A stretch of DNA of 37,653 nucleotides, from positions 1-37,653 of IMG/VR virus record IMGVR_UViG_3300042508_000132. One strand, given 5' to 3'. This document shows, piece by piece, positions 13,680-37,653 of this stretch. The stretch is from a virus. A program made the position numbers and the translations under genes. Numbering within the stretch: the first letter of the stretch is position 1; every line of letters starts with the position of its first letter. Below the pieces are notes generated by a model. It was not told the DNA's origin, did not search any database, and saw only the letters and a list, made by a program, of their open reading frames with translations.

Positions 13680-13690
13680 TATATATAATA

Positions 13691-14292: not shown

Positions 14293-14296
14293 TAGT

Positions 14297-16942: not shown

Positions 16943-16963
16943 TAACATATAAAATAAAACAGT

Positions 16964-17293: not shown

Positions 17294-17302
17294 TAAATAG
17301 TT

Positions 17303-17986: not shown

Positions 17987-17987
17987 T

Positions 17988-18449: not shown

Positions 18450-18458
18450 TAATACATC

Positions 18459-19100: not shown

Positions 19101-19119
19101 AATACTTACTGAGACTGAC

Positions 19120-19533
19120 ATGTATGTAGAGTTCAAAGAGTATATTGGAGCAGGCAAAAGATATAAAGTAACACTGAAGATTTTTAGAGATATACTTAAG
19201 GATTATATGAAACATATATCTAGTACTATAATCGACAGGGGCGCAATCTTCACTCCACTATACTCTGTTGGGTCTATATTTGTTGGGAAAAGAAAGATAA
19301 CTAGACATGTCAGAGAAAGGCTTAGAGTAGACTTTAAGGCTACAAAGGATTTAGGCAAGACTGTACTTCATTTAAACGAGCACTCAAATGGGTTTAATTA
19401 TATGTTTAGATGGAGAAAGAAAGACTCTAGAGCTGCATATGTCAATATGTATGAACTAATAATGTCTAGACAAAATAAAAGAGAACTGGCGAAATCAATA
19501 AAAGAAAATAGAACAGATTATTTAGAATACTAA
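19120..19533 (+). CDS. Small conserved-looking tail protein
   Basis: The start at 19120 (137 residues) is preferred to an in-frame ATG at 19045, because the latter would overlap the end of the previous gene by 56 nt. The protein is basic and has an aromatic/Arg-rich core (GAIFTPLYSVGSIFVGKRKITR, HSNGFNYMFRWRKKD). It has no membrane span. I do not recognise a named family. Its place between two ring/adaptor proteins, with 1 bp to the next gene, implies a role in head completion or tail assembly; the basic surface could contact DNA in the channel. Confidence 0.6.
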   Translation: MYVEFKEYIGAGKRYKVTLKIFRDILKDYMKHISSTIIDRGAIFTPLYSVGSIFVGKRKITRHVRERLRVDFKATKDLGKTVLHLNEHSNGFNYMFRWRKKDSRAAYVNMYELIMSRQNKRELAKSIKENRTDYLEY

Positions 19534-19534
19534 T

Positions 19535-20476
19535 ATGATTTATAATACAATTAGCGTTATGCAAGTTATATCAAAAGTACTTGCTGACCTAGACATAAAA
19601 GAAGATCCACAGCGCATAGCAGATATGATTGAATGGGCTAGCGAGGCTGTCGAAAAGATAGGCTCAGTTAAGCAGCTAGAGAGAGCAGTGTCTGGTGTAG
19701 ATGGAGAAGAATACCTAGAGATAAAGAATAGCCAAGCGAAATTACCGTTTGGCCTTTTCCGTTTAAATCAAGTAGGTTACAGCACATCAACTAATGGCCC
19801 ATGGTTTCCAATGAAGGTATCACAATCATCATTCAATAAATGGTCTGAATCAGGAACAAGCCCATACGACGTATCGGACATGGTAGTAAAAGATGCAGAC
19901 ATGATAGAGATGGTTAAAATACTGTATCAAAAATACGAAGAGAATCCTGTATATGCATGGTTTTCTAAAGTAGACTATGAGAAGGCTCTCGAGATACTTA
20001 ATACAAACCAGAATGTAAGAACCCTCTTGTCAAATATGATCAAGAGAAATACAGGAAACAATACTAAGGTAGATAATTCCAATTTAGTATATTCAATTAA
20101 ACCTGGATACATAAACACCAATGTTTCGTCTGGATACTTAAAATTAAGCTACGACAGGCAAATAACAGACGAGAATGGATTTCTAATGATACCAGATAAG
20201 CTTTCTTATATAGAGGCAGTATATTGGTATATAGTAATGAAGTTGTCGTACCCGGAATGGAGAAGCGGAAAGATTAGGACTGATATATATATTGACGCCA
20301 AGACATCTTGGGCGTTCTATTGCAAACAGGCTTATGCTGAATCAATGATGCCAAACCAGGATGAAATGGAAACCATAAAGAATGTGTGGAACAGATTACT
20401 TCCAGATATGACTGCAGACAATGATTTCTATAGCAATATATCTAGCAGAGAAGTAGTATACAATAAAAATAGATAA
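19535..20476 (+). CDS. Tail tubular / ring protein
   Basis: A 313-residue protein. It starts with a helical bundle (VMQVISKVLADLDI, ADMIEWASEAVEKIG), has a beta-rich middle (about residues 65-115 and 180-220: YSIKPGYINTNVSSGYLKLSYDR, abridged), and ends with helices (FYCKQAYAESMMPNQDEMETIKNVW, abridged). This helix-beta-helix order and its place directly before the stabilisation protein fit the crAss-like ring proteins that build the short tail barrel. Specific ring identity is not assigned. Confidence 0.62.
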   Translation: MIYNTISVMQVISKVLADLDIKEDPQRIADMIEWASEAVEKIGSVKQLERAVSGVDGEEYLEIKNSQAKLPFGLFRLNQVGYSTSTNGPWFPMKVSQSSFNKWSESGTSPYDVSDMVVKDADMIEMVKILYQKYEENPVYAWFSKVDYEKALEILNTNQNVRTLLSNMIKRNTGNNTKVDNSNLVYSIKPGYINTNVSSGYLKLSYDRQITDENGFLMIPDKLSYIEAVYWYIVMKLSYPEWRSGKIRTDIYIDAKTSWAFYCKQAYAESMMPNQDEMETIKNVWNRLLPDMTADNDFYSNISSREVVYNKNR

Positions 20477-20478
20477 TT

Positions 20479-23400: not shown

Positions 23401-25155
23401 CCTGGATGTGATATTTTAAATATAGGCGGAACTAGCACTAGCAAGCCAATATACGCAGAGACTGCAGATGATTTATTTAATTCAGGATACCCATCACTAA
23501 CATTTAAGTTTTATTCATCTTTAAATACAAGAGACGCCAATCTTGCTGCAAATGATAGCTATATATCTGAGCTTAAAACAATAGTAAGGAGCAGTAATGA
23601 TATAGAAAGTTACAATATAATGCGCAATCAGAGCGCTAGTTCTATGCCTGTGTTTAATATATTAGAATCTAGTTATGCGGCGCAGACGTCAGAAGCTGTA
23701 GCTCACCAGGATTATACTAATTCTACGTCAGTGGGGGGAGTATTATTTTATAATTTTTCAAAATCATTATCCAGTCAAATACCTTACGTTGTAAATGAGA
23801 AGTCAGACATAATAAGGGCTGAACTATTCTGGGATGACGACAAAAATAATAGGGCTAGCGCAACAAACATAGCTTCTCTAATAAATAGATCTAAAATATC
23901 TGGATTGCATGGAGCTGGACTTCTAATCAATACAGAAAGTGAGATTCCCTCTATATTTGGTATTGATGAGCACATGCGAAAATATAATGCAGGAACTTTA
24001 AATAGTAGATTTAGTGCATTAGAATCAAAGATAAGAGCTGGATTAACTACATATATTGTAGATATAAAGGCAAATAACATAGGAATCTATGGTGGTCCAT
24101 CATACCAGGACAGGCAGTTCTCAGAGTACATATCTACTGGATACTATTTCTCTAACGATTCGGATGTTAAAAGCAAGGCTGTATTTGGCGGAGATACGTT
24201 TATATCAATGTTTGAATATACGATAACATCTGCAAACGATCAAACTAAAGTAGGCTCAGAAGCAATGATGAGTAAGAATAACTGGTGGAATGACGTAGTT
24301 TTATCTCAAAGTACTAGAACCGCTGCCATCATACCATTGGAAACAGGTATAAATGTATTTAACGATGACGGTGTGTCTTTCACGGACTCAAACAATACCG
24401 TTATACAGGTGTTATCAGGAGTATATTCTCCAGGAGCTAGCCATGGCGTAAAATATAGCAAGGCTCAGCAAAAAGACCAATACAATTATGATTCAGTATT
24501 TTCATCAGAAACTACTGCAATTGGATTTACATCTGATATACTAAATGAAGAGCAATACAATAAGTACGACTGCAGGATAGTAAATTCTGAAAAGAAGTCC
24601 AACGACGAACTAGATGATTCGTGGGCTATATTTAAGCCAGCAAATTATATAGATGTCGATACTAAATTTGGAGAAATAACTAGAATAGTAAGTCATTTTA
24701 ATAAATTGTACTATTTCCAAGAAGATGGTATTGGCGTTGTCTCTGTAAATGAAAGATCTCTTATAACATCAGACGATGGGGCTGATTTAGCGCTTGGAAC
24801 AGGAGGCATATTAACTAGATACGACTACATATCTACTAGCGCTGGACTGTCTAAATTAAGCATAAAAGGGCTACTTCCAACTGAAAGTGGGATATATTGG
24901 GTCGACAAAGATAGGAATGCTATATTCAGAGTTGCTGGAGACGGTATAGACCAAGTATCTAGAACTAAGGGAGTTCAGGCGGATATAAATAAAAGCACTG
25001 ATACATTTGGAACCAGGTCTCTTATTTGGAAGAATAAAAAACATGCCGAGGTTGTATTTTCTAATTTATATATTCCTAATAGAGAGTCTTTTGGATTGAT
25101 GTCAAACACAGGAGATGTCTTAGAGACAGACGATGAAAAAATAATTACTACATAA
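20479..25155 (+). CDS. Tail stabilisation / muzzle protein, main part
   Basis: A 1,558-residue protein. The N-terminus has the signature of crAss-like and P22-gp10-like stabilisation proteins, INTFTGGMNPDVD followed by SYIHAENIRI (residues ~9-39). The rest is a long chain of beta-propeller and beta-sandwich-type repeats with Y/W/D-rich turns, ending in a propeller-like segment (FGEITRIVSHFNKLYYFQEDG, abridged; YWVDKDRNAIFRV). In this family the protein closes the tail tip and surrounds the exit channel. The usual C-terminal module is missing here and appears instead as the separate ORF at 25155, in the -1 frame and just after an A6 run. Translation of the two is coupled by TAATG. Confidence 0.78.
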   Translation: MQSKIGSEQINTFTGGMNPDVDVSSSKANSYIHAENIRISPDSSSSFGAMSPLEDEIVSLNDAFDESTIVHSDSVRDIAVVFTTDSSYTYIYRISKSGESLVSKKILKVDYVVQPKVSTVLRYEDDDNIRLYWTDGVGQIKSYNVAPSNDKPTITITPESSINIIPASNLSAPIISEITSGKLNRGRIQYVYRGTNESGSSSVMSSASKIVDLKEEGTNEILLVDDGQPNSGLGVKLKIDKTELTGFNRIKLYSIYYDNYSSTPKISLILDTKVLDITGTQLIFNDYGTSYLQELTIEEFAQIGISFFSAKYIDSKDNILFAANISDIEFDVDYDTRAYQFSNTEYEDAIIVEAGYVRQFSTTSGYLYNAINIIPEAGMVLSDLVKEWDILTLIDGNDSFIIVDSVDDLNSRIVFKSAIYPNYSSGDDIEISEGVYAKYREATVYNSNDAPTIIFSTDSMALADNHDCIHREIYETEKWSDLEYIYNKNGFLGGSGPNVSYKYVNTYLIGAAEGLRTSTYEASPSNKFIDDRIVRLGGNQSTVDSLLINKSDGALEYQDISEFGIEAHSGKLDYSNRLISGALQSYKRDEIYRFGAVFYSKDGRKTDVKWIADIRFPAGYFEDTVNRWTSSMFEMPEDFLANYDVNSTIKNRLDKQELLVKPLGIEFEFSNLDSIPEVAKIEIVRCKRDVNNRTIYTQGVLQKIGTFTNPTKGDELYNDIKYYDRNNLNTLRPHSIISMGENYGMAPLVADTYTSSGFSGAQTLGFNEFYNTNPLKIGRLLAGDSASITMSPYYSSRTNKMLISPEVSYYGEDFAIQLARIPSKYLSMERVVSPKITPATSNTSLSGGESVSYIGSPLHSNLRFEYESVLWPSAMYAGADLTEDLMATGYKDTMFFILGLAGMDVLNSMTSETLGTNITENDYNEKSYDLTLSSPFLEDYSPKVLISGTGLLSRVNFGDMPQLWTNQYTYKSGFPGCDILNIGGTSTSKPIYAETADDLFNSGYPSLTFKFYSSLNTRDANLAANDSYISELKTIVRSSNDIESYNIMRNQSASSMPVFNILESSYAAQTSEAVAHQDYTNSTSVGGVLFYNFSKSLSSQIPYVVNEKSDIIRAELFWDDDKNNRASATNIASLINRSKISGLHGAGLLINTESEIPSIFGIDEHMRKYNAGTLNSRFSALESKIRAGLTTYIVDIKANNIGIYGGPSYQDRQFSEYISTGYYFSNDSDVKSKAVFGGDTFISMFEYTITSANDQTKVGSEAMMSKNNWWNDVVLSQSTRTAAIIPLETGINVFNDDGVSFTDSNNTVIQVLSGVYSPGASHGVKYSKAQQKDQYNYDSVFSSETTAIGFTSDILNEEQYNKYDCRIVNSEKKSNDELDDSWAIFKPANYIDVDTKFGEITRIVSHFNKLYYFQEDGIGVVSVNERSLITSDDGADLALGTGGILTRYDYISTSAGLSKLSIKGLLPTESGIYWVDKDRNAIFRVAGDGIDQVSRTKGVQADINKSTDTFGTRSLIWKNKKHAEVVFSNLYIPNRESFGLMSNTGDVLETDDEKIITT

Positions 25156-25646
25156 TGAATAGCATAATATTTTCAGAACAAATAGATGCATTTTCTACAT
25201 ATGCCGACTCTAATCCAATTGAAGTATTCCACTTAGATGGAGATACGTATGGGATATATGAAACAGGCGAGATAAAGAACATTAACGGCGGATATAACGT
25301 TGGAGATAATATACAATTTGTATCATTCTCTGTAAACACTAATCCGTCGGAAACAAAGGCTTTTGATAACGTAGAATTGCATTTTACAAATAACAATAGT
25401 AATCCACCGTCATATGCATGGTTTACTAATACAAAGCAAAGTAGCTTGCAATCAACGAGCTCTGATTTCGACAACAGAGAAGGAACACATAAATTATCAA
25501 TCCCAAGAGCTTCATCAGACTTATTTGCTGACAGGATGAGGGACAAATTTATAATATGCAATTACGAGTTTATAAGAACTACGCATGATTCAAAATATTT
25601 CTCTTTGCCATATATAAAAACAAAATTTAGATATTCATCAATATAA
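25155..25646 (+). CDS. Tail stabilisation protein, C-terminal module as a separate ORF
   Basis: A 163-residue protein that looks like the normal C-terminus of stabilisation/muzzle proteins: SIIFSEQIDAFSTYAD near the start (compare the family pattern hhFxExhxxFtSfys), ETKAFDNVELHF in the middle, and R-E-G-T-H-K-L-S-I-P-R then RMRDKFIICNYEF near the end. The -1 reading frame is open upstream as far as 25137, so a single extra A in the A6 run (25136-25141), or a -1 ribosomal shift, would join it to the 1,558-residue ORF. It may therefore be a true split subunit, a frameshift product or an assembly error. Confidence 0.7.
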   Translation: MNSIIFSEQIDAFSTYADSNPIEVFHLDGDTYGIYETGEIKNINGGYNVGDNIQFVSFSVNTNPSETKAFDNVELHFTNNNSNPPSYAWFTNTKQSSLQSTSSDFDNREGTHKLSIPRASSDLFADRMRDKFIICNYEFIRTTHDSKYFSLPYIKTKFRYSSI

Positions 25647-27898
25647 TGAAGAAAACTAATAAGAAATTAAAAAAATATAAAGATGGTACTCCATGGTATA
25701 TGGATGGCGCTATAACAAAAGAAGGCAGTAGGGCTGCTAGTACTATAGGCGGAGTAGGCAATGTGGTATCAGGCGCTAGTACACTTGCGTCCTATTTCAA
25801 TTCTGGCGACGAGGGGGATTTGTCAAACTACGTCACATCAACACTTGGGATGGCTGGGCAAGGAGCTGCAGCTGGAGCTGCATTAGGGCCATGGGGAGCT
25901 ATAGCTGGAGGTGTTATAGGAGGAGCAGCTGGACTAGTTATGCAGAAGAAAAAAGAAGCTGAATACAACAATAAAGTAATCCAGAAATCTATAAACAGCA
26001 ATTTAGACTCAATAAGCATGGCGTCAAATAATATCAAGTCCCGCAATTCTATTTATTCTCCAAGGAATTATTCAGTTCCTGGATATAAAGATGGGGTTGC
26101 ATCGGCAATCAATCCAAATGCACTAGTATCTAATGGAGAAGGGTTTAGGGACCCTATAACAGGCAGAGTTGGAACATTCCCAGGCGAGCCAAATAACAAT
26201 GATAGTCTTGCTGTACAATTACAAGAAGGAACATCTATATACTCAAATGCATACAAGCTTCCTTATGGTAAGAAACTAACACCGGCAAAGGCAATAGCTA
26301 AAATGGAAGCAGTACAGAAAATTGACGACAAGATGGCTAAGTTTGGTGGACAAATAAATGATAACACTAAGAAGCTTAACGATATAAATAGAAAGAAGCA
26401 AACTGAATTGCTTAATATGAATACACAAATAGAGAATATGGGAAAATCAAAACCTAAATTTATGCCTAAGTTTGCAGGAGGGACGCATTATTACACAGAA
26501 CCATTGTCTACGTACAGTAAACTTCCATTTGATAAAGCTACAGCAGAGAGGATGGCAAAACAAGGCATGTACTATTCTGGTGCAGACGAGAGCGGAAGAC
26601 ATAATTGGCATGCTCAGTTTAAACCTGAGATATCAGATAAATTTAATGAGGCGCAAAGAGCCGGTAAAATATATGCTGCTTTAACTGCTGATGAAAATGG
26701 ATTAATGAGAATAGGTGGTGTTAGCAAGCTAGACCCAGTTGCAACTACAAATCTAGGAGCAGATAAAGAGCAGCTGCCTATATCTACCCAAGTAGCATCA
26801 GCGCAACAAGCTAATCCATCGTACAATGGTATAGTGCCAGGAGTACTAGAGTCTGATTGGAATACAATGATGAATAGAGGAATTAAAGCTGGACAGCCTG
26901 GATATAACCCTGATTGGGTATTTAAAGGACAGGCGGTTCCGTTGTCAGAAGTACGAAGATCTGCAGCAGCAGGGGAACAAAATAGATATACTTTAGATAA
27001 TACAGGTACAGCATGGATTCCAATGACTAATACGTCCACTAAGCCTATTTTAAAGCCCTCTACGGCAGTTTCTCCTCAAAAAGGTTCTACCCTACAGCAA
27101 GCACCAGCCGCTCAGGAAACGGCCTTAAAACAAGCCGAAACGCCAGCAGTAGCTACTCCAGCAATTGCGCCTAAAGTAGCAGCAGTTGAACCTCAGAAAG
27201 CAGCGACTGTTGAAGAGCCTAAAAAAGAGTTTACTGCAGAGAATGGATTGACAACAGAAGTGTTCAATAAAGGATTTGGAGACTATGCGTCCGAGCTTGG
27301 ATACAACTTAGCATCATTAGCGCCTGTAGCAGCCAATTGGTTTGGAGCTAAACCTGAATATGAGACTCCAAGATACGAAACTGCAATCAATCCAACATTG
27401 AGGGTTAATATGTCTAAGCAAGTGGAAGATGCTAGAAAGAAAAGTCAGATAGCTAGATATAACCAACGTGTTATGAATTCTGGAACTGGAGCGGGCACTA
27501 CATTTGGAGCTTCTACGTATGCAGCAGGGCTAAACAATTTAAATGCCATATCTGCTAATGCTGATAATATCAATAATGAATATAGAGCTAAATCTGCGGC
27601 AATATCAAATGAGATAGCGTCTAGAAATGCTAATGTATTTAGAGAAAATCAGAAAAGTAGAATGCAGACTGATGCAAATGTTAGAGCACATAAGAAAGCA
27701 GCATTAGCTCAATTCTCTGATTATGCTCAAAATAAGCAATTGATGAAGAATCAGAAAGAAAGAGATATATTAAACTCAGAAGTGTTTGCGTCATTCGCTA
27801 ATTTACCGGAAGCAGAAAGACAGAAGTTCTTTGGAATGATGACGTCTAAGAGGCCTGTATTTAAAAAGAAAACTACAACTAAAACAGCAACAACATAA
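25646..27898 (+). CDS. Cargo / ejection-type virion protein 1
   Basis: A 750-residue protein. It has a basic N-terminus with KKYKDGTPWYMDG, echoed later by VPGYKDG and FMPKFAGG. A Gly/Ala-rich hydrophobic stretch at about residues 69-99 (MAGQGAAAGAALGPWGAIAG onward) resembles membrane-active parts of ejection proteins. A coiled coil spans residues ~205-265. An Ala/Pro/Glu-rich linker (~465-530) leads to a helical C-terminal part (QKSRMQTDANVRAHKK). This matches the cargo proteins of crAss-like phages, which are stored in the virion and pass into the cell with the DNA. It is coupled at both ends by TAATG junctions. The role is by family resemblance and position. Confidence 0.62.
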   Translation: MKKTNKKLKKYKDGTPWYMDGAITKEGSRAASTIGGVGNVVSGASTLASYFNSGDEGDLSNYVTSTLGMAGQGAAAGAALGPWGAIAGGVIGGAAGLVMQKKKEAEYNNKVIQKSINSNLDSISMASNNIKSRNSIYSPRNYSVPGYKDGVASAINPNALVSNGEGFRDPITGRVGTFPGEPNNNDSLAVQLQEGTSIYSNAYKLPYGKKLTPAKAIAKMEAVQKIDDKMAKFGGQINDNTKKLNDINRKKQTELLNMNTQIENMGKSKPKFMPKFAGGTHYYTEPLSTYSKLPFDKATAERMAKQGMYYSGADESGRHNWHAQFKPEISDKFNEAQRAGKIYAALTADENGLMRIGGVSKLDPVATTNLGADKEQLPISTQVASAQQANPSYNGIVPGVLESDWNTMMNRGIKAGQPGYNPDWVFKGQAVPLSEVRRSAAAGEQNRYTLDNTGTAWIPMTNTSTKPILKPSTAVSPQKGSTLQQAPAAQETALKQAETPAVATPAIAPKVAAVEPQKAATVEEPKKEFTAENGLTTEVFNKGFGDYASELGYNLASLAPVAANWFGAKPEYETPRYETAINPTLRVNMSKQVEDARKKSQIARYNQRVMNSGTGAGTTFGASTYAAGLNNLNAISANADNINNEYRAKSAAISNEIASRNANVFRENQKSRMQTDANVRAHKKAALAQFSDYAQNKQLMKNQKERDILNSEVFASFANLPEAERQKFFGMMTSKRPVFKKKTTTKTATT

Positions 27899-29838
27899 TG
27901 GTTAATTTATACGATAATCCAGCACAAGCAAAATTTATAAATACATATGTTCCAATTCAATTTGAGCATCTATATAAATTAGCAGACAAAAGAGAAGCTG
28001 ATATGGAAAAAGCATATGCAGCTATTGAGAAAGCAAGCTCTGTTGAGGCATTAGGCTCACTATCAGACGTAGACAATAAGTTATATGAACAAGAGTATAT
28101 CACTCCAATAAAAAACTTTATAGCTAATAATGTAAAAGATATGAGTTCGCTTGCAAATCCAAAAGTAAGGGCTCAGCTTAGTCAGTTAGTTCATAATGCA
28201 ACAGCATCATCTGGGGCTAAAAATGCAATGGCCTCAAAAGCTATGTATGGTGAATATTTAAAGAATCTAGACCCTAGATGGGGTCAGGCTGGGATAGAAC
28301 AGATAAAGACTCATAATACATTCCAAAATGGTATATTCACTGGAAAGCCGTTGGAGTACTTTGATGTAGATGCAGTGGGCCAAAAGGTAATAAAAGGGAT
28401 GGGTAGTAAATTAATTAAATCTGCAACACCTGGAGATTGGAATGATTATTATGGACAGAGTCCAGAAGACATACGGTCTTATGTAAATGAAAGAGGATTG
28501 GAATTTGCGAATGATCCATCTGCTATGTTGTACGCAAAGCAGGCACTGTCATCTGGCAGGGCATCTAAGGAGTATTATGAGCTAGACGAGAAAGGAAATC
28601 CAACAGGCATAAAGCCAGGCGCTGAAATTCAATTCATACAAGACGCCGTTTATGGTGCTGCATCAAAAGCAGCTACATTAGAAGGAAAGCCAAATAGAAG
28701 AATGGAGGCTATGTATGACAGGTCTACTCAATTCGCATTACTTGGCGCAAGACAAGCTCATGAAGAAAAAATGAAGGACAAAGAGGATGCCCCAGAGCAA
28801 AAAATAAGCGTATTGGCCTCTATAAAAGGAATGGCAACTGACAACTTTGGTCAATCATTGGTACAGACAGCTGGCTCTAGAGTAGAAGAATTGCTTAAGG
28901 CTGGAGCTTCTAGAGCGGAATTAGTCGGACAGGTTGGCTCAGAGATAGTTCTTGCTGCTGAAAAGAATATAGAAAAACAACAATTAGAAGGGCAAATAAA
29001 GGAGCAGGAATCAAACCTAAATTATCTACAAGCATCTGGGGATAAAAGTGCTGAGACGACAAGTAAGATAGCTGAGCTATCTAAATCAGTATCTGCTGCT
29101 AAAGCTAAATTCGCTGAAGTTGACAAACAATACGCATATGCAATAAGGTCTGCCGCACCAGTTATAATGAATAATGTAAGAGGGTTGAATAATTCAGTAG
29201 AAAAAGCTGGAACACAAAGTTCTAGAATGATAACAATTAATGGAAAGAAACATCCATTCTTATCGACTGCAGATGTAGAGGACGCATCAACTGGATATGT
29301 AGATCCATTAGTTATGAACGAATATGCTGGCATTTCACTTGGCGGAAAAACAAAAGCTACAGTTAAATCTACTGGGTCTCAAAGAGATATGATATCTGTA
29401 TCATCAGCAAATCAATTAAATGTTGTAAATCCAGTATCAAATTCTAAAACTAAATTTACAGAGACTGCTGTAATTAATAGAGCTACAGACGCAATAAACA
29501 ATGCGTTAGCTAGCGGTAAATTAAATGGCAAAGTATTAGCTGAGGCTTCTGGGAAGATTAGAGTTACTGGGGCAGATGTAGATGCTCAATACTTAATGTA
29601 TATACCAAAAGAGGAATTAGAAGCAGCTTTAAGTTCAGTGCCAGGCTTTTCATCAGGAACTACAATATTAGCACTTAAGAATGCAGGGTATATATCAGAG
29701 GAGACTATATCTACAGAAAAAGGATTATATGGTGTAGTTGGAGATAGAAAGATGTATGTAGTACATGCAAACTCCAAAATACAAGATAATGCCATAACTG
29801 ACAGGCTGACCAGTTCGGCAACGAAAATAAACAAATAA
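27898..29838 (+). CDS. Cargo / ejection-type virion protein 2
   Basis: A 646-residue, mostly helical protein rich in Ala, Lys, Glu and Ser. It starts with a pattern (DNPAQAKFINTYVPIQFEHL) typical of the second large cargo protein next to the stabilisation gene in crAss-like phages. A strong coiled coil lies at about residues 335-405 (EKNIEKQQLEGQIKEQESNL onward). The C-terminal ~200 residues are more beta-rich. No signal peptide or enzymatic motif is seen. Cotranscribed with its neighbours by TAATG on the left and a 16-bp gap on the right. Probably packed inside the virion; function unproven. Confidence 0.6.
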   Translation: MVNLYDNPAQAKFINTYVPIQFEHLYKLADKREADMEKAYAAIEKASSVEALGSLSDVDNKLYEQEYITPIKNFIANNVKDMSSLANPKVRAQLSQLVHNATASSGAKNAMASKAMYGEYLKNLDPRWGQAGIEQIKTHNTFQNGIFTGKPLEYFDVDAVGQKVIKGMGSKLIKSATPGDWNDYYGQSPEDIRSYVNERGLEFANDPSAMLYAKQALSSGRASKEYYELDEKGNPTGIKPGAEIQFIQDAVYGAASKAATLEGKPNRRMEAMYDRSTQFALLGARQAHEEKMKDKEDAPEQKISVLASIKGMATDNFGQSLVQTAGSRVEELLKAGASRAELVGQVGSEIVLAAEKNIEKQQLEGQIKEQESNLNYLQASGDKSAETTSKIAELSKSVSAAKAKFAEVDKQYAYAIRSAAPVIMNNVRGLNNSVEKAGTQSSRMITINGKKHPFLSTADVEDASTGYVDPLVMNEYAGISLGGKTKATVKSTGSQRDMISVSSANQLNVVNPVSNSKTKFTETAVINRATDAINNALASGKLNGKVLAEASGKIRVTGADVDAQYLMYIPKEELEAALSSVPGFSSGTTILALKNAGYISEETISTEKGLYGVVGDRKMYVVHANSKIQDNAITDRLTSSATKINK

Positions 29839-29854
29839 CAACAATTGCAAAATA

Positions 29855-32800
29855 ATGACAAGAGAAGACATTAAAAGGGCTTTGCAGGGTGAAGATACGA
29901 GATTTGGCGAATATGTTAGGTCTCGTAGCTCTGTTTATGGCCAAGGAAGAAGCGAACTTGACGAACTAAAACGCAGAAATGAATACGAAGAGGCTAAGCG
30001 CAAGCGCCCCTCTAAAGATGAACCTAAGCGCAAAGCGGCTCGCGATGAGTCAAAAGACGCAGAAGATGGGCAGAAAAAACTGCCACTTGAAAATGAAACT
30101 AAAAAAGGAAATGATTATAACTTCTTTGCCGATTCATATAGAACGTTTGTAGGCGGAAAAAACCAGACAGAAATAGACAATGCTCTAGGAGAGTTAAAAT
30201 ACAACCTTCCTGTGTTTAAGTATTCATCAGATATGCTCTCATCAAAGGAGGTTCAATCTGATGAGGATTTATATAAGGCAGCTAGGTTTGCAAGGGAAAT
30301 GCAGTCGAATGCCAAAGCACAGGCTTTATTTCAAAAAAATGAAGAACTGTCTGCAGAACAAGCCAGGCTTAAATCTCTATATGAAAGTGGAGATAAAAGC
30401 GTTTCTGCTGCATTCATAAATAACGAGCCATGGAACCCAGAATCAAAAGGCAAAACAATATATAGTTTAACTGGGGCTGTGCAGCAAGGAGAAGGGCCTA
30501 GTTTTCTTGAGAAAGCAGATATGATGATGGGCGCGTCTCATGGATATGCTGAGTGGGAGCAAATGAAAGGAATGGTGAGTGGGTTATTTAGAACCGTTGG
30601 CACGTCATTGGTAGCAGCCGCTGTTGCTCCTGTTATATCTGTAATGGGCAAAGTATCTCTAGGAAATGCAGTTGGCAATATACTTGGAGGGCTTACACTT
30701 AAAACTGCAGCAGATGTCGCAATTGATAAGCCGGTAGATCTAATATCAAATCTATCTGATGCAACTAGATTCTCAATGGGATATGTTCCAGCTGTAGCAG
30801 GTGGCCTAATCGGAGCTGGTGTTAATAAGTTTATGCCGTCTGGTGATGTAAGACAAGGTTATATTGATATAGACGACTCATTGGTTCCAGAAGATACTAA
30901 ATATGCCTATTCAAAATACAAGGACTTAATAAAAAACTGGTCAAAGGTTGGTGGAGATTTTGATGGTACAATTCCATCCATAGATGACGTGCTTGACGGA
31001 AAGGAGTCTCTACACTCATATACTGGAGAAAAGGTTGGTAAATTTGACTCGGTATTAGCTAAAAAAACAAAAGATGCACAAGAAAGCATAAAGACTGACT
31101 TGAATGATCTTAGGATGTGGGGAGCTCCATCTGAATATGCTACAAAGAAAGTAGAAGAAAATGACTGGTATTGGGGCAAGATGCTTAATACAAGTGGGAT
31201 GTCTATGTCTGAGTTTGAAGGGCAGGTCGGCTTAATAGCATTAAATTCTGCTATATCTTTGGCTACAAAAAAGCCAACAATTGGAACTAAATTATTGTCT
31301 TCTCTAGCTCTTACTGGAGCTAACGCTGCTTTTGCTGTAAGAAGTAGAGATAGTGAATTCTTTTCTCAGTTTAGTCAAGCCTTTAACGAGAAGCAAGATG
31401 CTATACTTGGAGAGAATGCTATATCTAAGATGTCATACGAAGAACTTCTATCTCATATATCTGAGCCAAAGGAAACTATGGACAAAGTAATGTCGCAATT
31501 TGGGAAGTATGATAAATCTCAAGAGAGACATAAAAGAGAGACGCTAGAGATGCTTATTAGAACTGGAATTGTTAAATCAGATATACCTGGAATAAATGAA
31601 GCAGCAGTAGCCGCTAGCGATGGCTCGGATGAGCTTGCTAGACAATATAGGTCTATGATATACTCAGATATGGGTCAAAATGGATTAATGCTAGCTAGTT
31701 TAATGCCTATAAAAGGTGGTATTCCAAAGGCCATGCAAGGACTGGCAAAATCTACTTCTGATTATTATAAGAATCTATCATTATCGTCTTTTATTAGAAA
31801 CAATAGAGCAGGAAGAGTTCTTGGAAAAACAGCTCAATTAGCATCAGAAGTTGGATGGGAGGCGTTTGTAGACGAACCTCTATTTGAAGAAATCCCACAA
31901 ACAATGATGGATATGAAATTCAAAGAAGGCTCATTAAAAGAAAATGCAGGAATCTTTGGATCTTATTTGGATAAAAACAAAACCATAAGCACTGGCGCTA
32001 AAGCATTATTTGGATTATCTGGAGACGAAAGATATGATAAAAACGCAGAATTGCTTGATACCTATTGGTCTACTGTTATGTCTGTAGCGTTTATGGGTGC
32101 AGGCAGAAACGTGATATCATCTCCTGCTCATATAAAAGAACTAAATAGAAGCTTTAATGCTGATAAATTATTTGATTCAGTTATAGAGCCAGGTATTAAG
32201 ACATCTGCATTTAAAGCAAAGGCGTCTGCATATATAGGAGCTGTTAAGAATGGTCAATTTGATTTTGTAATTGAAAACTTAAAAGAACTTCAAAAGAATC
32301 CACCAGAAGGATATACTGCAGAAGATATTACTAATGAAATTAAACTGGCTAAAAGAATTGCATCTATAGCTGATAGTAAATTTGTAAGAGAATATGCCAA
32401 GAAATCAGGTGGCTATGGTTCAGAGGACCACTTATTGCTTACATCATTAATATCAGACCATGAGAACGCTGCAAGAGAAGGATATCTTGAGAGCAGAACG
32501 GCTAATGAAGCTGAGGCTAATCTTCTTGCTAATTTTGACGAGACTACATTTTCTAAATTAGTTACATCTATAAATACAACTAGGGAGGACGCAGATAAAA
32601 TAAGCACTGGAGCTGCAATAGGTATTGCCATGCTTAGAAATAAACTAGCTGCTATTGCTACGATATCAGTGAATGACCCTCTTGAGTCTAAGGCTTCAAA
32701 AATAAAAAGCAACTTAATAACGAGAGCCGCATCAGATGATTTAGGAAGTGTATCTTCTAATTTAATAGATGCATTATTAAATGCTAAATTAATAACAGAG

Positions 32801-35800
32801 GAGCAGGGGGCTGAACTTCTAAAAATAGAAAACTCTAAAGATCTTAGTGATGCAATTGATGAATTTGTTCCTATTGAGCTTAATGATGATATTAAGGACA
32901 TGGCTTATGGATTAGTATCTTCATACGGAGCTCAATATGAAGAACATATGGCATCCATACTTAGAGGAGATCAAACTCTTTACAATAGAGAGAAAGACAC
33001 AAAAGTAGATAGATTCCATGATGTAGACGAGCTCCTTGATATGCATAGAAAGTCTCTTGAATCTAATGAAAAAGAGCAGAGAGTTCTAGAGGCTGCTGAA
33101 ACCAAAAGAGAAGAGAAAAAGAGGGAAGCTAAAACAAAGCCAGAAACAACTGTAGTAGCCGAGCCTGTTGTAGAACCTATTGTAGTTGAATTGGAATCAT
33201 TAGAGCCAAAGTGGGAAATACCATCTGCTCCTGAAATAGTTGAATACGAAAGCCTAGAGTCTGCTCCAGAAGTAGAGACAGAGCAAGTTCCACCACTAGA
33301 CGAGACAGATATTCCTCCATTAACTGAGGCCGACTTGAACTCATCAGTAAATAGAGCCGAGGAATTGTTAGCAGATGACAACTTCGATCCATTTAGCGAT
33401 TACGATAAAGAGGAGGAGGCTGCTAAACAGGCCGCAGATAATCAGGAGGAGCAGGCTCCCACACAAGGAATTACAAATAATGGGACAATTTACCCAGTGC
33501 TGGACTTAAGTAAAATAGATACAGATAATTTTATATATGTAACTCACCAAACAGATATCGTCGGGCTAGAACAAATTCTTTCAAGAGGGTTTGATATAAG
33601 GAATGGGCTAAATGGAACATCATTGTTTGGGAATACAGAATCTATTCAAAGCCAAATGGACAGTATTAATTCTGGACACGGCCATAGAGGGGCTAGCAGG
33701 ATGATTGTATTCGCATTCCCTAAATCAAAATTCGGGAATGTAAGGCAGCTGGATGAAATATCAGATATGCTTATCGATGAGGGAATATTTTCTATTCCCG
33801 GCCAATATGTATTTGGAGTATTCACCGAAAATAATAAGCCAATCACACAAGAAGCTGCTCCACAAAAATCCAAACAAGACGAGCTTAAGGAGAAATTAAA
33901 CGCTAGACTAGCTCACTTGGCTGATGTTGCCACGGATGTTCTTGGATCTAAAATGAATGCTACTGGAAAGCAATATTCAAGCAAAGACTTCTTACCAGCA
34001 ATGACTGGGGTACTAGAGGTTATTATGGAGCTTGGATATACATCATTCGTAGATGTAGTATCTAATGCATCTGATGCTATGAAAGGAAATGCAGTACTTG
34101 CAGGTCTTATTGATAGAATTAGCCCTAAACAATGGAGAGCTGCTTATAACTCGGCTGCAGACTTTGCAGAAGGTACACAATCAGAGGAGGAAGTTATAGC
34201 CTATTCTAATGATGATGTAAAAGCTATTGTTGCTGGAACATATAAGAAAGAAGAAGAGATCGATATCAATGAAGATTTAGAAGATCTTAATCAGCCAGAA
34301 AAGACTGAGGAAGAAGAGAATAAAGAAGCGTCTAAAGAGATATCAGAAATAGTTAAAGGCGCTGCTGCTATATCTATTGCAATGGAGAAAGAGGATTCTT
34401 CTGACTTTGTAAATATAGATGACGAGGCTCCTGGCACAATTGACGAGGATAAAGTCTCAGTTAGATTTGGTAGATTGCCACATACACTATTTACGTCTAA
34501 TCCAGAAATAATTAAATGGTTAAAAACTCCAAAAGCCTTAGAAGGCGCTACATTTGAAATAGAGATATCTACAATACCTTTTGATAAAGTGCCACAATCT
34601 AGAAAGGACGCAGGAGACTATATCCCATTCGACATCAATAATCCTAATTCATGGAACGAGGCTGCAATATTTGTTAAAATAAAAGATAAAAATGGCGTAG
34701 TTAGACCATTGAATATAAGCTTCCACAACATAGCAGTTAATAGCATGTTTGAGGATTCTGATGGCAATATGTATCCTAAGTTCAACGAACAGGATATCGC
34801 TGATTTAGTTGATTTTAGAAATAAGATAATAGCTTTATATGCAGAAAGCTTAGCAAATGGTTCTAATAAGGAATTAGTTGTATCTGGCGTATCTATAGGT
34901 AGAGCTAAGATAAAATTAAACAGAAAGAATGGTAAGCCGGTACAGAGAAGCCTGTCTAAAATCAAAGGACTAATAGAAGGCTTTAATGGAGATTTCTCTA
35001 CTATAAACAACAATACATTAAGCTTAGCTTACGGTAGGGGGTGGAGAGGTAATTTTACTGTAGTTGGAATTGACGGAGTGATAGGTGATACTGATGAACA
35101 GAACTCTGGTAGTATGTTTGCAGTAAAGATTGACCCTGTACTTGGAACTAAAAGAAAGATAAAATTAAATAAACGTAGATTCTCAGAAGATAAAGATACT
35201 GCAGAATTTATATACAAACTACTTATAGACTGGAACATGTCTAAAGGTGAGTTAGCGTTAGACCGAGACGGAAATGTTGTTTTGGCCGGAGACGGTGCGT
35301 CTAATAGGTTAGGTATATCAGCAGAAGGCTTATTGTCTAAGATAGTTAACTTTGGAAAAAGAACTCAAATTAATAAGAAGGACTTGCCAATGTTGACCCA
35401 CCTGCTTCCAAAGCAATTCTACGTAGAAGGCAATTCACTATATCTAGGAGAAGCTAAGTTTGACATATCAAATCCAGCTGGAATATCTCCTGAAATTAAA
35501 GCTCAGATAATAGACTACATTAAGAATAACTTTAACTGGTCTATCAATGCTCATGACTTATGGAATCAAACTGGAGCTAATAGAAAGGTGGCTGATGTGT
35601 TTTCAGGTATCACCGACTACTTCAGATCTAATCCAGAAGCTAAATCAATTAAGTTCTTTGAAGGAATGGAAATTAAGAGAGAGGACTTAGGTTTAACCTG
35701 GGAAGCTTGGATTGTTAAATACGATAAGCTTATATCTGACGTTGCCGATGATATCTTTGAATCTCCGTATACATTCTTAAATGATGTAGAGCTTGCAGAT

Positions 35801-37653
35801 AGAATGGATAAGCCAACTATCAAGAAAGTTGCAAAGAAAAAGACAGATGCCAAAGAAGCCGCTTTAGAGCCTGTTTCTGACACGCAAAAAGCAGATGTAG
35901 TAGAAACATCAACTAACACTCAAAAGTCGCTAGAATCGCCTGAAAATGGCCTTAAAAGCGATGCTAGCGAGCAAGTTTCTGGTAAGAAGAAATTTAAGAA
36001 GAGGACTAGTGGCGATGTAGATAAAATATCTGACTTAGGTGTAAATGCTGTTGGTCCTACAAGACTGTCAACTAGTCATGCAGAGGAAGATAATTTAACT
36101 AATAGCGAACAAGCTTGGGCTAGAAAAAGGATATCATCTCTTATTGAAATCAGTGATACTGAAATTGAAATGGAGAACGGTGATATTGCTATGGGTGTAG
36201 CTAACATCTTAAAGAATATTATTACACTATTCTCTGGCGCAGAAAGAGGCACTGCTTACCACGAAGCATTTCACATTGTGTCTCTTGGGTTAATACCAAG
36301 AAATAGAAGGATGATGATATATGACTCAGTTAGGCGTACTATACCATCATTGAGTGATGCTACAAATAAGGATATAGAGGAATACTTAGCCGAGGAATTT
36401 AGAGTATGGAGAGAGACTAATAAGATCGGCATTAAGATACCGATGCTTAGATCTGTATTCAGAAAATTCTCCAACCTATTTACTGGAATGAAGTCTGCAA
36501 ACAAGTCTGATATAAATAGATTATTTGAGGATATCGAATACGGTATATTTAAAAACAAAAAAGGTCCAAAGGCTAAATCTGAGCAATCTAAATTCTTTAC
36601 TAGATTCTATGTAGATGGAGCTGCTAGAACTTTGAAGTCAAAAGGATTCAATGCTATCAATACATTGGATATGCAATACGAAGTAGCCAAGGGGTTAGCA
36701 TTCTCATTCATAGAATTATCTGGAGTTGAAAAAGTTTCTGATATCCGCAATATGAGTAAAGACGTACTATATGATAGTATTCTTGCAGAGTATGAATATA
36801 TGGAAGAAAATGGAATGGAAGATACATTGAAATATAAAATATATGAAGATATATTGGATAAATTTGATGAGGAAATAGTTCCATTAATAAATAAAGAATT
36901 ATCTTCATTTGGGATAGCCCCAGCTGTATTCGATGTAGATGGAAACGAAATAGAGGATAACGATAAAGATATCGTAAGTAACGAGATAGCTAAACATACA
37001 GTAGAATCATATAAGGTTCCTAAGTCTGATAATATTCCAATGGAGGTTAAATTCTTCTTATGGACTATCCCTCAAAAAGAGAAAAATGCAGACGGTGTTG
37101 TTGTAGATAAATTTAACCCATTAACTGGCTTTAAATTATTCTACGACCAGACCACGTCGTGGGTTACAGTTGCAAGCGATTTAGGTCATTTGAAATCGTA
37201 CACCGAGATGAGGAATAAAATATATTCTCTTGGTGTTGTATCTGGTAATTTATTCTATAGAAGCGTATTAGATAAGCTTGACAATTCTAGCGATAGATTT
37301 AAAACAGCATTCTTTGCCGCAGTAAAATGTCATAGACATGACTTTGCGAGTATAGCATTTACTGGAGACAAAAATGGAAACATGGCTGAAGCCGACAGAA
37401 GACTTAGGGTTATAGAGTCAAAGGCTACAACTGCCAAGATAACTAAGCCAAAAGAATGGGGTGAGAACATGATGTCTATTGGATTTTTATTCTCTGATAG
37501 TGTTGATGGGCCAGTATTTAACAAGGCTAATGCCGAGTCTATAATAGCCAGACATAAAGCACTTGTATCATTTGCCGGTAGATTAACAAATCCACTAGAA
37601 GCTGAAAAGATTACTGACGAGCAAATTACTGCTGCTATTAATGAGTATATTGA
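29855..37653 (+). CDS. Giant multidomain virion protein with zincin and ART-like regions, 5' part
   Basis: Open from ATG 29855 to the window edge: 2,599 codons with no stop. Regions in order: a basic, Arg-rich N-terminus (residues ~40-75); two Gly/Ala hydrophobic segments (~248-282 and ~309-328), perhaps membrane-active; a long helical region; a Pro/Glu-rich linker (~1080-1210); an ADP-ribosyltransferase-like segment (YVTHQT 1228-1233, then LEQILSRGF and GHGHRG); helical and beta-rich domains (~1300-1990); a Lys/Ser-rich linker (~1990-2060); and a zincin metalloprotease motif, AYHEAFH, with HEAFH at 2136-2140 and LAEEF at 2178-2182 supplying a likely third zinc ligand. Giant proteins of this kind lie in the same place in crAss-like phages and are thought to be delivered with the DNA, some being or accompanying a virion RNA polymerase. 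No convincing polymerase motif is visible in this part. Confidence 0.8.
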   Translation, partial: MTREDIKRALQGEDTRFGEYVRSRSSVYGQGRSELDELKRRNEYEEAKRKRPSKDEPKRKAARDESKDAEDGQKKLPLENETKKGNDYNFFADSYRTFVGGKNQTEIDNALGELKYNLPVFKYSSDMLSSKEVQSDEDLYKAARFAREMQSNAKAQALFQKNEELSAEQARLKSLYESGDKSVSAAFINNEPWNPESKGKTIYSLTGAVQQGEGPSFLEKADMMMGASHGYAEWEQMKGMVSGLFRTVGTSLVAAAVAPVISVMGKVSLGNAVGNILGGLTLKTAADVAIDKPVDLISNLSDATRFSMGYVPAVAGGLIGAGVNKFMPSGDVRQGYIDIDDSLVPEDTKYAYSKYKDLIKNWSKVGGDFDGTIPSIDDVLDGKESLHSYTGEKVGKFDSVLAKKTKDAQESIKTDLNDLRMWGAPSEYATKKVEENDWYWGKMLNTSGMSMSEFEGQVGLIALNSAISLATKKPTIGTKLLSSLALTGANAAFAVRSRDSEFFSQFSQAFNEKQDAILGENAISKMSYEELLSHISEPKETMDKVMSQFGKYDKSQERHKRETLEMLIRTGIVKSDIPGINEAAVAASDGSDELARQYRSMIYSDMGQNGLMLASLMPIKGGIPKAMQGLAKSTSDYYKNLSLSSFIRNNRAGRVLGKTAQLASEVGWEAFVDEPLFEEIPQTMMDMKFKEGSLKENAGIFGSYLDKNKTISTGAKALFGLSGDERYDKNAELLDTYWSTVMSVAFMGAGRNVISSPAHIKELNRSFNADKLFDSVIEPGIKTSAFKAKASAYIGAVKNGQFDFVIENLKELQKNPPEGYTAEDITNEIKLAKRIASIADSKFVREYAKKSGGYGSEDHLLLTSLISDHENAAREGYLESRTANEAEANLLANFDETTFSKLVTSINTTREDADKISTGAAIGIAMLRNKLAAIATISVNDPLESKASKIKSNLITRAASDDLGSVSSNLIDALLNAKLITEEQGAELLKIENSKDLSDAIDEFVPIELNDDIKDMAYGLVSSYGAQYEEHMASILRGDQTLYNREKDTKVDRFHDVDELLDMHRKSLESNEKEQRVLEAAETKREEKKREAKTKPETTVVAEPVVEPIVVELESLEPKWEIPSAPEIVEYESLESAPEVETEQVPPLDETDIPPLTEADLNSSVNRAEELLADDNFDPFSDYDKEEEAAKQAADNQEEQAPTQGITNNGTIYPVLDLSKIDTDNFIYVTHQTDIVGLEQILSRGFDIRNGLNGTSLFGNTESIQSQMDSINSGHGHRGASRMIVFAFPKSKFGNVRQLDEISDMLIDEGIFSIPGQYVFGVFTENNKPITQEAAPQKSKQDELKEKLNARLAHLADVATDVLGSKMNATGKQYSSKDFLPAMTGVLEVIMELGYTSFVDVVSNASDAMKGNAVLAGLIDRISPKQWRAAYNSAADFAEGTQSEEEVIAYSNDDVKAIVAGTYKKEEEIDINEDLEDLNQPEKTEEEENKEASKEISEIVKGAAAISIAMEKEDSSDFVNIDDEAPGTIDEDKVSVRFGRLPHTLFTSNPEIIKWLKTPKALEGATFEIEISTIPFDKVPQSRKDAGDYIPFDINNPNSWNEAAIFVKIKDKNGVVRPLNISFHNIAVNSMFEDSDGNMYPKFNEQDIADLVDFRNKIIALYAESLANGSNKELVVSGVSIGRAKIKLNRKNGKPVQRSLSKIKGLIEGFNGDFSTINNNTLSLAYGRGWRGNFTVVGIDGVIGDTDEQNSGSMFAVKIDPVLGTKRKIKLNKRRFSEDKDTAEFIYKLLIDWNMSKGELALDRDGNVVLAGDGASNRLGISAEGLLSKIVNFGKRTQINKKDLPMLTHLLPKQFYVEGNSLYLGEAKFDISNPAGISPEIKAQIIDYIKNNFNWSINAHDLWNQTGANRKVADVFSGITDYFRSNPEAKSIKFFEGMEIKREDLGLTWEAWIVKYDKLISDVADDIFESPYTFLNDVELADRMDKPTIKKVAKKKTDAKEAALEPVSDTQKADVVETSTNTQKSLESPENGLKSDASEQVSGKKKFKKRTSGDVDKISDLGVNAVGPTRLSTSHAEEDNLTNSEQAWARKRISSLIEISDTEIEMENGDIAMGVANILKNIITLFSGAERGTAYHEAFHIVSLGLIPRNRRMMIYDSVRRTIPSLSDATNKDIEEYLAEEFRVWRETNKIGIKIPMLRSVFRKFSNLFTGMKSANKSDINRLFEDIEYGIFKNKKGPKAKSEQSKFFTRFYVDGAARTLKSKGFNAINTLDMQYEVAKGLAFSFIELSGVEKVSDIRNMSKDVLYDSILAEYEYMEENGMEDTLKYKIYEDILDKFDEEIVPLINKELSSFGIAPAVFDVDGNEIEDNDKDIVSNEIAKHTVESYKVPKSDNIPMEVKFFLWTIPQKEKNADGVVVDKFNPLTGFKLFYDQTTSWVTVASDLGHLKSYTEMRNKIYSLGVVSGNLFYRSVLDKLDNSSDRFKTAFFAAVKCHRHDFASIAFTGDKNGNMAEADRRLRVIESKATTAKITKPKEWGENMMSIGFLFSDSVDGPVFNKANAESIIARHKALVSFAGRLTNPLEAEKITDEQITAAINEYI

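What the first reader, a model, noticed from the sequence alone, without database searches (positions are those of the whole stretch)
29855..37653. Giant (>2,599-residue) multidomain protein at the cargo position
One uninterrupted frame fills the last 7.8 kb. It combines hydrophobic, possibly pore-forming segments near the N-terminus with at least two enzyme-like regions, separated by disordered charged linkers. That is the layout of a 'polyvalent' protein delivered with phage DNA to disarm or reprogram the host. The two linkers (~1080-1210 and ~1990-2060) split it into blocks that could be separated by proteolysis.
Basis: partly seen in the sequence, partly recalled or inferred. Interest (0 to 1): 0.72.

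Follow-up and report, generated by a model that had tools for sequence, protein, structure and literature searches.

The report
Giant phage RNA polymerase with add-ons
The huge open frame is the first 43% of a 6,070-residue protein of a crAss-like phage: the RNA polymerase that such phages are thought to inject with their DNA, here carrying a tail of interchangeable enzyme domains that may shield the incoming genome.

Summary
The frame is real and runs off the window. An 85.9-kb contig, identical to the window over the gene's part inside it, shows that the protein ends at residue 6,070. It is the giant RNA polymerase of a Suoliviridae-type crAss-like phage: residues 2309-3867 match the solved virion RNA polymerase of phage phi14:2, with DFDVD at 3628. 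The N-terminal block ends in a zincin, as in crAss001 gp47, a virion protein. Crass polymerases of about 6,000 residues are known. What my searches did not find in print is the tail behind the polymerase: NADAR, a SLOG/DprA-like domain, DUF1848 and an SF1 helicase. Of 67 distinct relatives, 22 carry one or more of the four, in 12 arrangements; only the window's contig has all four, and its sister group has none. That the tail protects incoming DNA is inference. New variant of a known kind.

The parts
29855..37653 (+). Residues 1-2599 of a 6,070-residue giant virion RNA polymerase cargo protein; the rest lies on contig IMGVR_UViG_3300042860_003408 (G001:32405-50617)
30593..30664 (+). Most hydrophobic segment (residues 247-270); not above chance as a membrane segment
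33092..33484 (+). First linker (about residues 1080-1210), strongly acidic at 1101-1200
34493..35809 (+). Conserved folded block, residues about 1547-1985 (most 10-residue blocks at pLDDT 70-95), shared with other Suoliviridae giants; no PDB match in a search of the whole 801-residue model, not searched alone
35807..36139 (+). Second linker, residues 1985-2095, pLDDT under 50
36083..36499 (+). Zincin metalloprotease-like domain, residues about 2077-2215
36260..36274 (+). HEAFH motif, residues 2136-2140; H, E and H invariant in the 18-row alignment
36380..36382 (+). Glu2176, invariant in the same 18 rows; likely third zinc ligand
   Evidence: role inferred from PMC5512222 passages
36779..37651 (+). 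Start of the virion RNA polymerase part (residues 2309 on, aligned to phi14:2 gp66 from its residue 155); DFDVD and the tail lie downstream of the window
27898..29838 (+). Neighbouring ORF of 646 aa at the position of crAss001 cargo protein 2 (by order only; no PHROGs match)
25646..27898 (+). Neighbouring ORF of 750 aa at the position of crAss001 cargo protein 1; weak match to an internal virion protein family (phrog_6056, E 2.1e-5)
20479..25155 (+). Virion structural protein, 1,558 aa (phrog_28748, E 5e-113), at the position of the crassvirus muzzle protein

Best explanation
The frame is the N-terminal 43% of a single 6,070-residue cargo protein: the virion RNA polymerase of a Suoliviridae-type crAss-like phage, fused at its N-terminus to a gp47-like block ending in a zincin protease and at its C-terminus to a tail of four enzyme modules (NADAR, SLOG/DprA-like, DUF1848, SF1 helicase). 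Shown by sequence: the fusion, its order, homology to the solved phi14:2 polymerase, the catalytic motifs, and that the tail is a site where these modules come, go and change order between phages. Inferred: the protein is packaged in the head, ejected (at least partly unfolded) with the DNA, and its polymerase transcribes early genes before the host can respond. The zincin sits at the junction of what are two genes in crAss001, so it may cut itself there. Most likely the tail works on the same incoming DNA or on the host's alarm molecules: NADAR takes ADP-ribose off guanines or NAD-derived signals, the SLOG domain binds or cleaves such nucleotides, the helicase opens DNA, and DUF1848 may reverse a base lesion. 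The polymerase would thus be a chassis that brings a changeable counter-defence kit to the genome it transcribes.
For: Continuation and stop. Polymerase: 6vr4_A E 1.4e-40, which is phi14:2 gp66; gp66 155-1374 and 1471-1665, E 6e-36 and 8e-14; DFDVD at 3628; T-G-S-D-F-D-x-D invariant in an alignment of 14 giants. gp47-like block: zincin 2085-2183 to crAss001 gp47 2102-2201, E 9e-7; HExxH and E2176 invariant in 18 rows. Virion homologues: PMC10172136 passages, NC_021806 annotation. Tail: NADAR 49.2 bits (cut-off 35.1), DUF1848 66.5 (30.5), AAA_30 88.5 (27), UvrD_C_2 44.6 (27.4); DprA-like phrog_768 E 2e-10, Dda-like phrog_325 E 4.5e-58. NADAR pattern E-x6-K plus a TH histidine in 5 of 5 aligned and in 10 of 12 copies of the polymerase scan; E and K match conserved active-site residues E88 and K95 by spacing (PMC11543638 passages), and I take the His for the one said to mark phage NADARs (PMC11125620 passages). 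DUF1848 CxxxCxxC in 9 of 9. Turnover: 22 of 67 with modules, 12 arrangements; changes needed on the tree / mean of shuffles: NADAR 9/10.4, SLOG 11/13.0, DUF1848 8/8.6, SF1 4/5.8; well supported branches alone force 8, 8, 5 and 3. Module models hit 0 of 1,270 reversed ORFs. SLOG shares an ORF with this polymerase in 38 of the 80 loci of the SLOG scan and also sits in a protein annotated as N4-type virion RNA polymerase (Pylas, E 4e-33). Of 29 scanned tails, 5 hold a 2OG-Fe(II) oxygenase and 1 ART-PolyVal.
Against: No virion or enzyme assay exists for this phage. 45 of 67 relatives have none of the four modules, so they are dispensable. Having any module is clustered on the tree (13 changes, shuffled mean 18.7, 0 of 500 shuffles as low), so exchange is not free across all lineages; SF1 too is clustered (5 of 500 as low). 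An E. coli-phage NADAR removed ADP-ribose from guanosine in vitro but did not protect cells from DarT1 (PMC11125620 section 5). Two of 12 NADAR copies lack the pattern. The SLOG type is unsure: no Pfam hit for the window copy, three relatives below cut-off. The function of DUF1848 is unknown. N4's polymerase with its zincin is packaged uncut (PMC5512222 passage), against cleavage before packaging. The C-terminal 3,471 residues rest on one contig.
Confidence: 0.7

Rival explanations
1. Plain virion RNA polymerase: the tail modules only help transcription or nucleotide supply (helicase melts promoters, NADAR and SLOG handle nucleotides), with no role against host defence.
For: The polymerase and zincin are the constant part (one ORF in 75 of 80 loci); 45 of 67 relatives manage without the modules. 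An SF1 helicase is easy to fit into early transcription (inference).
Against: Gain, loss and reordering between close kin looks like accessory, conflict-type genes, not a core transcription aid; NADAR and SLOG are predicted to handle ADP-ribose derivatives in phages (PMC9503650 passages).
Confidence: 0.2
2. A narrower form of the best explanation: a genome-repair kit rather than an anti-signal kit. The tail directly reverses lesions on incoming DNA (NADAR: ADP-ribosyl-guanine; oxygenase of a family that, as I recall, includes AlkB, in relatives: alkylation; DUF1848: perhaps radical-SAM-like; DprA-like and helicase: strand handling).
For: 2OG-Fe(II) oxygenase domains in 5 of 29 scanned tails; NADARs hydrolyse guanosine-ADP-ribose on DNA, a phage member included (PMC11125620 section 5); CxxxCxxC in 9 of 9 DUF1848, with weak hits to a radical SAM family (E 0.0032, far below its cut-off) and a 'DNA repair photolyase' family (phrog_9252, E 0.035).
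Against: The SLOG model is nearer to 3imk, a putative molybdenum carrier (Z 12.3), than to DprA (Z 6.6); no solved structure matched DUF1848 convincingly; the radical SAM and photolyase hits are near noise.
Confidence: 0.35
3. Ejection or pore protein: the N-terminal block forms a membrane channel for DNA entry.
For: Cargo position after the structural genes; the most hydrophobic 19-mer lies in the first 700 residues in 7 of 10 giants examined.
Against: Hydropathy not above shuffles (87 of 200); PMC10172136 expects gp45 and gp46, not gp47, to form the channel (passages).
Confidence: 0.15
4. Assembly artefact: the four-module tail is a chimera of two phages.
For: Only one contig carries it.
Against: The frame stays open through 18.2 kb; G+C of the tail modules (0.35-0.40) is close to that of the rest of the gene (0.35-0.38); each module occurs in the tails of relatives; the next gene is the expected gp49-type protein.
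Confidence: 0.05

Closest known systems
Cellulophaga phage phi14:2 virion RNA polymerase gp66 (PDB 6vr4)
   Same: Homologous polymerase with DxDxD catalytic motif; virion protein by MS annotation
   Different: gp66 is 2,180 aa and separate from gp67; it aligned only to residues 2309-3867, not to the tail modules
crAss001 gp47 + gp50 (+ gp49)
   Same: gp47 C-terminal zincin and gp50 polymerase correspond to blocks of the giant; the next ORF (2,343 aa) matches gp49
   Different: Three separate genes, gp49 and gp50 on the other strand
Giant proteins of Suoliviridae such as cr118_1 (4,946 aa), cr50_1 (4,774), cr130_1 (5,801), cr272_1 (6,386)
   Same: One fused ORF with zincin, polymerase and, in some, tail modules; annotated 'DNA helicase', 'DprA-like' or 'hypothetical'
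   Different: Other subsets and orders of modules; 10 of 14 giants compared contain in-frame TAG, the window phage's does not
Polyvalent proteins (Iyer et al. 2017, PMC5512222, passages seen)
   Same: Very large multidomain, phage-borne, zincin hub domain; N4-type virion polymerases belong there
   Different: The paper's main text has 0 occurrences of 'crass' and of 'NADAR'; the N4-type polymerase is, as I recall, of an unrelated fold
Klebsiella phage Pylas virion RNA polymerase (Schitoviridae, N4-type by annotation)
   Same: Carries the same SLOG module at residues 983-1203 of 3,819 (36% identity)
   Different: No match to the crAss-type polymerase core or to the other tail modules; where its own catalytic domain lies was not tested

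Membership tests
crAss-like virion RNA polymerase (phi14:2 gp66 type) | Sequence homology to the solved polymerase | tested here: met
   6vr4_A E 1.4e-40, identified as gp66; E 6e-36 to gp66
crAss-like virion RNA polymerase (phi14:2 gp66 type) | Catalytic DxDxD motif | tested here: met
   DFDVD at residue 3628, beyond the window
crAss-like virion RNA polymerase (phi14:2 gp66 type) | Place after muzzle and cargo genes of a crAss-like phage | tested here: met
   TerL 63.4% to cr118_1; cargo genes by order
crAss-like virion RNA polymerase (phi14:2 gp66 type) | Presence in the virion and transcription of early genes | not testable with these tools
   known only for homologues
Polyvalent protein | Several unrelated enzyme domains in one phage polypeptide | tested here: met
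   zincin, polymerase, NADAR, DUF1848, helicase
Polyvalent protein | Zincin metallopeptidase with HExxH and a downstream Glu | tested here: met
   invariant in 18 rows; fold matches Z about 7, tied among PPEP, lethal factor and ArdC, so the fold evidence alone is weak
Polyvalent protein | Delivery into the host cell | not testable with these tools
   -
NADAR, phage type | Pfam NADAR above cut-off; E-x6-K and the His of phage NADARs | tested here: met
   49.2 vs 35.1 bits; pattern in the alignment; features from PMC11125620/PMC11543638 passages; that the TH histidine is the one meant is my inference
SLOG superfamily, cpYpsA branch | Pfam cpYpsA or matching fold | tested here: inconclusive
   no Pfam hit in the window copy, three relatives below cut-off; model pLDDT 92.9, 3imk Z 12.3, rmsd 4.4 over 150 residues; Foldseek nothing at E<=1e-3
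DprA recombination mediator | DprA family match | tested here: inconclusive
   phrog_768 E 2e-10 but HpDprA only Z 6.6
DUF1848 | Pfam match and C-terminal CxxxCxxC | tested here: met
   66.5 vs 30.5 bits; 9 of 9
SF1 helicase (RecD2/Dda-like) | Family match and Walker A | tested here: met
   GSAGSGKT at 5577
ADP-ribosyltransferase inside the window (residues about 1205-1345) | Any family or sequence relative | tested here: not met
   none found
Pore-forming or ejection protein | Hydrophobic segments beyond chance | tested here: not met
   87 of 200 shuffles as high

The most novel reading that the evidence does not exclude
The injected virion RNA polymerase serves as a general delivery chassis: phages bolt interchangeable DNA-cleaning and NAD-signal-clearing modules onto it so that they arrive first and stay on the incoming genome. 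The same SLOG module joined two kinds of virion polymerase (crAss type and N4 type), which would make counter-defence fused to the first transcriber a convergent strategy.
Probability: 0.4. Interest if true: 0.8.

Novelty: new variant of a known kind. Interest (0 to 1): 0.55.

Why it matters
CrAss-like phages dominate the human gut virome (86.7% of virus reads in PMC7886860, passages), and their giant polymerase proteins are often annotated as hypothetical or under misleading names. Reading the tail as a swappable kit gives concrete, testable guesses about how these phages survive the first minutes in a cell, which defences they face (guanine ADP-ribosylation, NAD-derived signals), and offers a modular protein-delivery system to study. 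The shared SLOG module links two kinds of virion polymerase.

Tried and rejected
ART-like reading of residues about 1205-1345: my own resemblance from memory. No relatives but itself in IMG/VR, none in 50,697 phage records at E<=10, in PDB (2 hits at E 0.6-1.5), in Pfam (residues 1201-1364) or, but for itself, in the + strand ORFs of L030-L189. Dropped. An ART-like segment does occur in the next ORF (about residues 399-553, E 3.7e-17 to the ART-PolyVal stretch of L135, which itself is below Pfam's cut-off); a Pfam scan of the first 588 residues of that ORF had not found it.

Whole 2,599-residue frame against Pfam (E<=10) and PHROGs (E<=0.01): nothing. Residues 1-2300 against PHROGs at E<=0.1: one hit at E 0.04.

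PDB matches for the block 1500-2300: Foldseek none at E<=1e-3; VIA-align covers mainly the zincin (Z about 7, tied). The block 1547-1985 stays without an identified fold; it was not searched alone. Residues 1-1080 were not modelled; alignment to cr118 (340-877, 23%) only says that part is conserved.

SLOG profile against PDB sequences: nothing at E<=1. DUF1848 profile against PDB: best E 0.045, implausible. Mixed SLOG+DUF1848 alignment A6 misaligned the two domains and was not used for a model; 9 of its rows are counted from a new alignment. Alignment A3 was built but not scanned (too long).

Literature: crass/NADAR/SLOG, any two (10 of 242 listed); five terms, any two (15 of 26 listed); 'crass-like' with 'NADAR domain' (0 papers); 'DUF1848' (0 papers); polyvalent/virion RNA polymerase/crass, any two (10 of 28 listed). 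Titles and abstract starts listed there did not point to this tail; I saw passages of PMC7886860 (with its section 7, part 1), PMC10136315, PMC10172136, PMC5512222, PMC9503650, PMC7824862, PMC11543638 and PMC11125620 (with section 5), and no other paper. Only openly licensed papers are held; Drobysheva 2021 and Yutin 2018 were not available, and figures (such as the domain scheme Fig. 3 of PMC7886860) could not be seen, so a prior description is possible.

Bias: the 67 come from the best 80 of 345 polymerase relatives, made non-redundant and limited to complete C-termini; module models were built from 2-5 seeds. The SLOG-scan loci were chosen for SLOG and are left out of the 67. The 29 tails scanned with Pfam were picked by me, mostly for length, from 90. 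In 5 of the 80 loci the polymerase core lies on two ORFs; there the tail was read from the downstream ORF. The tree is a quick one (28 of 64 inner branches starred).

Full report
Observation. The frame at 29855 is open to the window's end, 2,599 codons, far beyond chance. A scan of IMG/VR with its last 799 residues found one contig, IMGVR_UViG_3300042860_003408, 85,865 bases, which equals the window without mismatch over window 25255-37653 (12,399 bases) and with 2 mismatches over window 1-17450; window 17451-25254 was not compared. There the frame ends after 6,070 residues (G001:32405-50617), followed by a 2,343-residue ORF and then, among the long ORFs, genes on the other strand. The window is therefore a truncated piece of a crAss-like phage: terminase, portal and major head protein match PHROGs families, and the terminase is closest to Suoliviridae phage cr118_1 at 63.4% (taxonomy).

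Anatomy. Blastp against 28 other proteins, 27 of them from annotated phage records and one the window phage's own next ORF (records; comparison), gives: 340-877 and 1513-1988 conserved with cr118_1; 2085-2183 with the C-terminal end of crAss001 gp47; 2309-3867 with phi14:2 gp66 and 3067-3636 with crAss001 gp50; 4567-4747 NADAR; 4901-5155 SLOG/DprA-like; 5132-5451 DUF1848; 5536-6044 SF1 helicase. gp66 is the solved virion RNA polymerase 6vr4. phmmer against PDB sequences agrees for the polymerase (6vr4_A, E 1.4e-40) and the helicase; Pfam for NADAR, DUF1848 and helicase, above cut-off; PHROGs for the DprA-like and Dda-like parts. The catalytic DFDVD is at 3628 and HEAFH at 2136. In an 18-row alignment H2136, E2137, H2140 and E2176 are invariant, the ligand set described for polyvalent-protein zincins (PMC5512222, passages).

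Folds. AlphaFold2 on residues 1500-2300 with 18 rows gave mean pLDDT 66.8: a mostly confident block at about 1547-1985, a disordered stretch at 1985-2095, and a zincin. Foldseek found no PDB match at E<=0.001; VIA-align gave Z about 7 for the zincin against PPEP proteases, anthrax lethal factor and ArdC, tied and in the range that may mean only a common arrangement. In the viral library the best matches are the giants of cr50_1 and cr118_1 (E 7e-26 and 1e-23). The SLOG module with 39 rows modelled at pLDDT 92.9; best match 3imk, a putative molybdenum carrier protein, Z 12.3, then H. pylori DprA, Z 6.6; Foldseek alone had nothing at E<=0.001. I recall, without a call, that 3imk belongs to the family now called cpYpsA.

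Comparative census. With an alignment of 14 polymerase cores IMG/VR gave 345 relatives, of which the best 80 were kept. In 75 of 80 the zincin and the polymerase core lie in one ORF; of the 5 others, L035, L037, L043 and L090 are cut too near the core to show it, and L058 has 3,330 residues before the core without a zincin match. After removal of near-copies, 67 loci from this scan have a complete C-terminus: 45 have none of the four tail modules and 22 have one or more, in 12 arrangements, for example NADAR-DUF1848-SLOG, DUF1848-NADAR-SLOG, SLOG-NADAR-DUF1848, SF1-DUF1848-SLOG. Only the window's contig has all four. The module models hit none of 1,270 reversed ORFs. On a quick tree of the polymerase core the modules need 9 changes (NADAR, 11 carriers; shuffled mean 10.4, 57 of 500 as low), 11 (SLOG, 14; 13.0, 41), 8 (DUF1848, 9; 8.6, 167) and 4 (SF1, 6; 5.8, 5). 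So NADAR, SLOG and DUF1848 are scattered almost as if at random, while having any module at all is clustered (13 changes, shuffled mean 18.7, 0 of 500 as low). The window's sister group L031, L033, L037 has none.

A scan with the SLOG module gave 129 relatives, 80 kept: 38 share an ORF with a crAss-type polymerase core, 6 of these with SLOG before it (three of the six, L124, L125 and L140, look like near-copies); 30 are in ORFs of 400 residues or less; 12 lie in longer ORFs without a core match, among them the N4-type polymerase of Klebsiella phage Pylas and L152, whose ORF aligns to crAss001 gp50. A Pfam scan of 29 of the 90 complete tails found NADAR in 7, SF1-type helicase (AAA_30) in 6, 2OG-Fe(II) oxygenase in 5, DUF7831 in 5, DUF1848 in 4, and cpYpsA, RNase H and ART-PolyVal in 1 each. 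L135 carries NADAR, SLOG, an ART-like stretch (below cut-off) and the oxygenase in one tail.

Mechanism. In crAss001, gp45, gp46, gp47, gp49 and gp50 are virion cargo by mass spectrometry and are thought to be ejected at least partly unfolded (PMC10172136, passages); phi14:2's polymerase transcribes early genes (PMC10136315, passages). By homology the giant is packaged, ejected and transcribes early genes. The zincin lies at the border between what are gp47 and the polymerase gene in crAss001, and follows a disordered linker; self-cleavage there is plausible, but N4's polymerase is packaged uncut (PMC5512222, passages). The tail is less certain. Phage SLOG and NADAR domains have been proposed to act on NAD-derived signals (PMC9503650, passages), while tested NADARs, an E. 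coli-phage one included, remove ADP-ribose from guanosine in DNA in vitro, without rescuing cells from DarT1 in the phage case (PMC11125620, section 5). Oxygenase domains in other tails, of a family that I recall to include AlkB, favour work on DNA. I give about equal weight to both and hold that the tail is an accessory kit, because it differs between close relatives.

What is known and what is new. Crass polymerases of up to about 6,000 residues are known (PMC10136315), and fused giants of 4,328-6,386 residues are in GenBank under names such as DNA helicase, nuclear pore complex protein-like or DprA-like. The polyvalent idea and the single domains are known. My searches of the held literature did not turn up the swappable NADAR/SLOG/DUF1848/helicase tail on crass polymerases, but I saw listings and passages only, and figures and subscription papers could not be read. 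Hence 'new variant of a known kind'.

Noticed in passing
L053, L055, L077, L087, L088: The polymerase core is split over two ORFs; the first part ends 140-160 residues into a model whose catalytic motif is at about 151. In cr131_1 (L019) a 729-base CDS lies between the two parts, as expected for an intron or homing element.
   Followed up: partly
L020:9055-20514 (Klebsiella phage Pylas): A protein annotated as N4-type virion RNA polymerase carries the same SLOG module at residues 983-1203 (36% identity to the window phage).
   Followed up: partly
L134, L136, L139, L141, L149, L150, L155: The SLOG module lies in ORFs of about 1,300-3,100 residues without a recognised polymerase core; four of the seven were scanned and gave no Pfam hit. 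Possibly unrecognised virion polymerases.
   Followed up: partly
L152:1604-10222: NADAR-DUF1848-SLOG sits at the N-terminus of a crAss001 gp50-like polymerase ORF, so the cassette can also precede the polymerase.
   Followed up: partly
G001:50638-57669 (outside the window): The next ORF (2,343 aa, gp49-like) contains an ART-PolyVal-like stretch at about residues 399-553.
   Followed up: partly
L022:15842-23050 (cr126_1): A Steigviridae polymerase has NADAR at its N-terminus (annotated DUF1768), a separate NADAR fusion in another family.
   Followed up: no
window 29855-37653 and G001: The window phage's giant gene has no in-frame TAG, whereas 10 of the 14 giants compared have 36-148 each.
   Followed up: no
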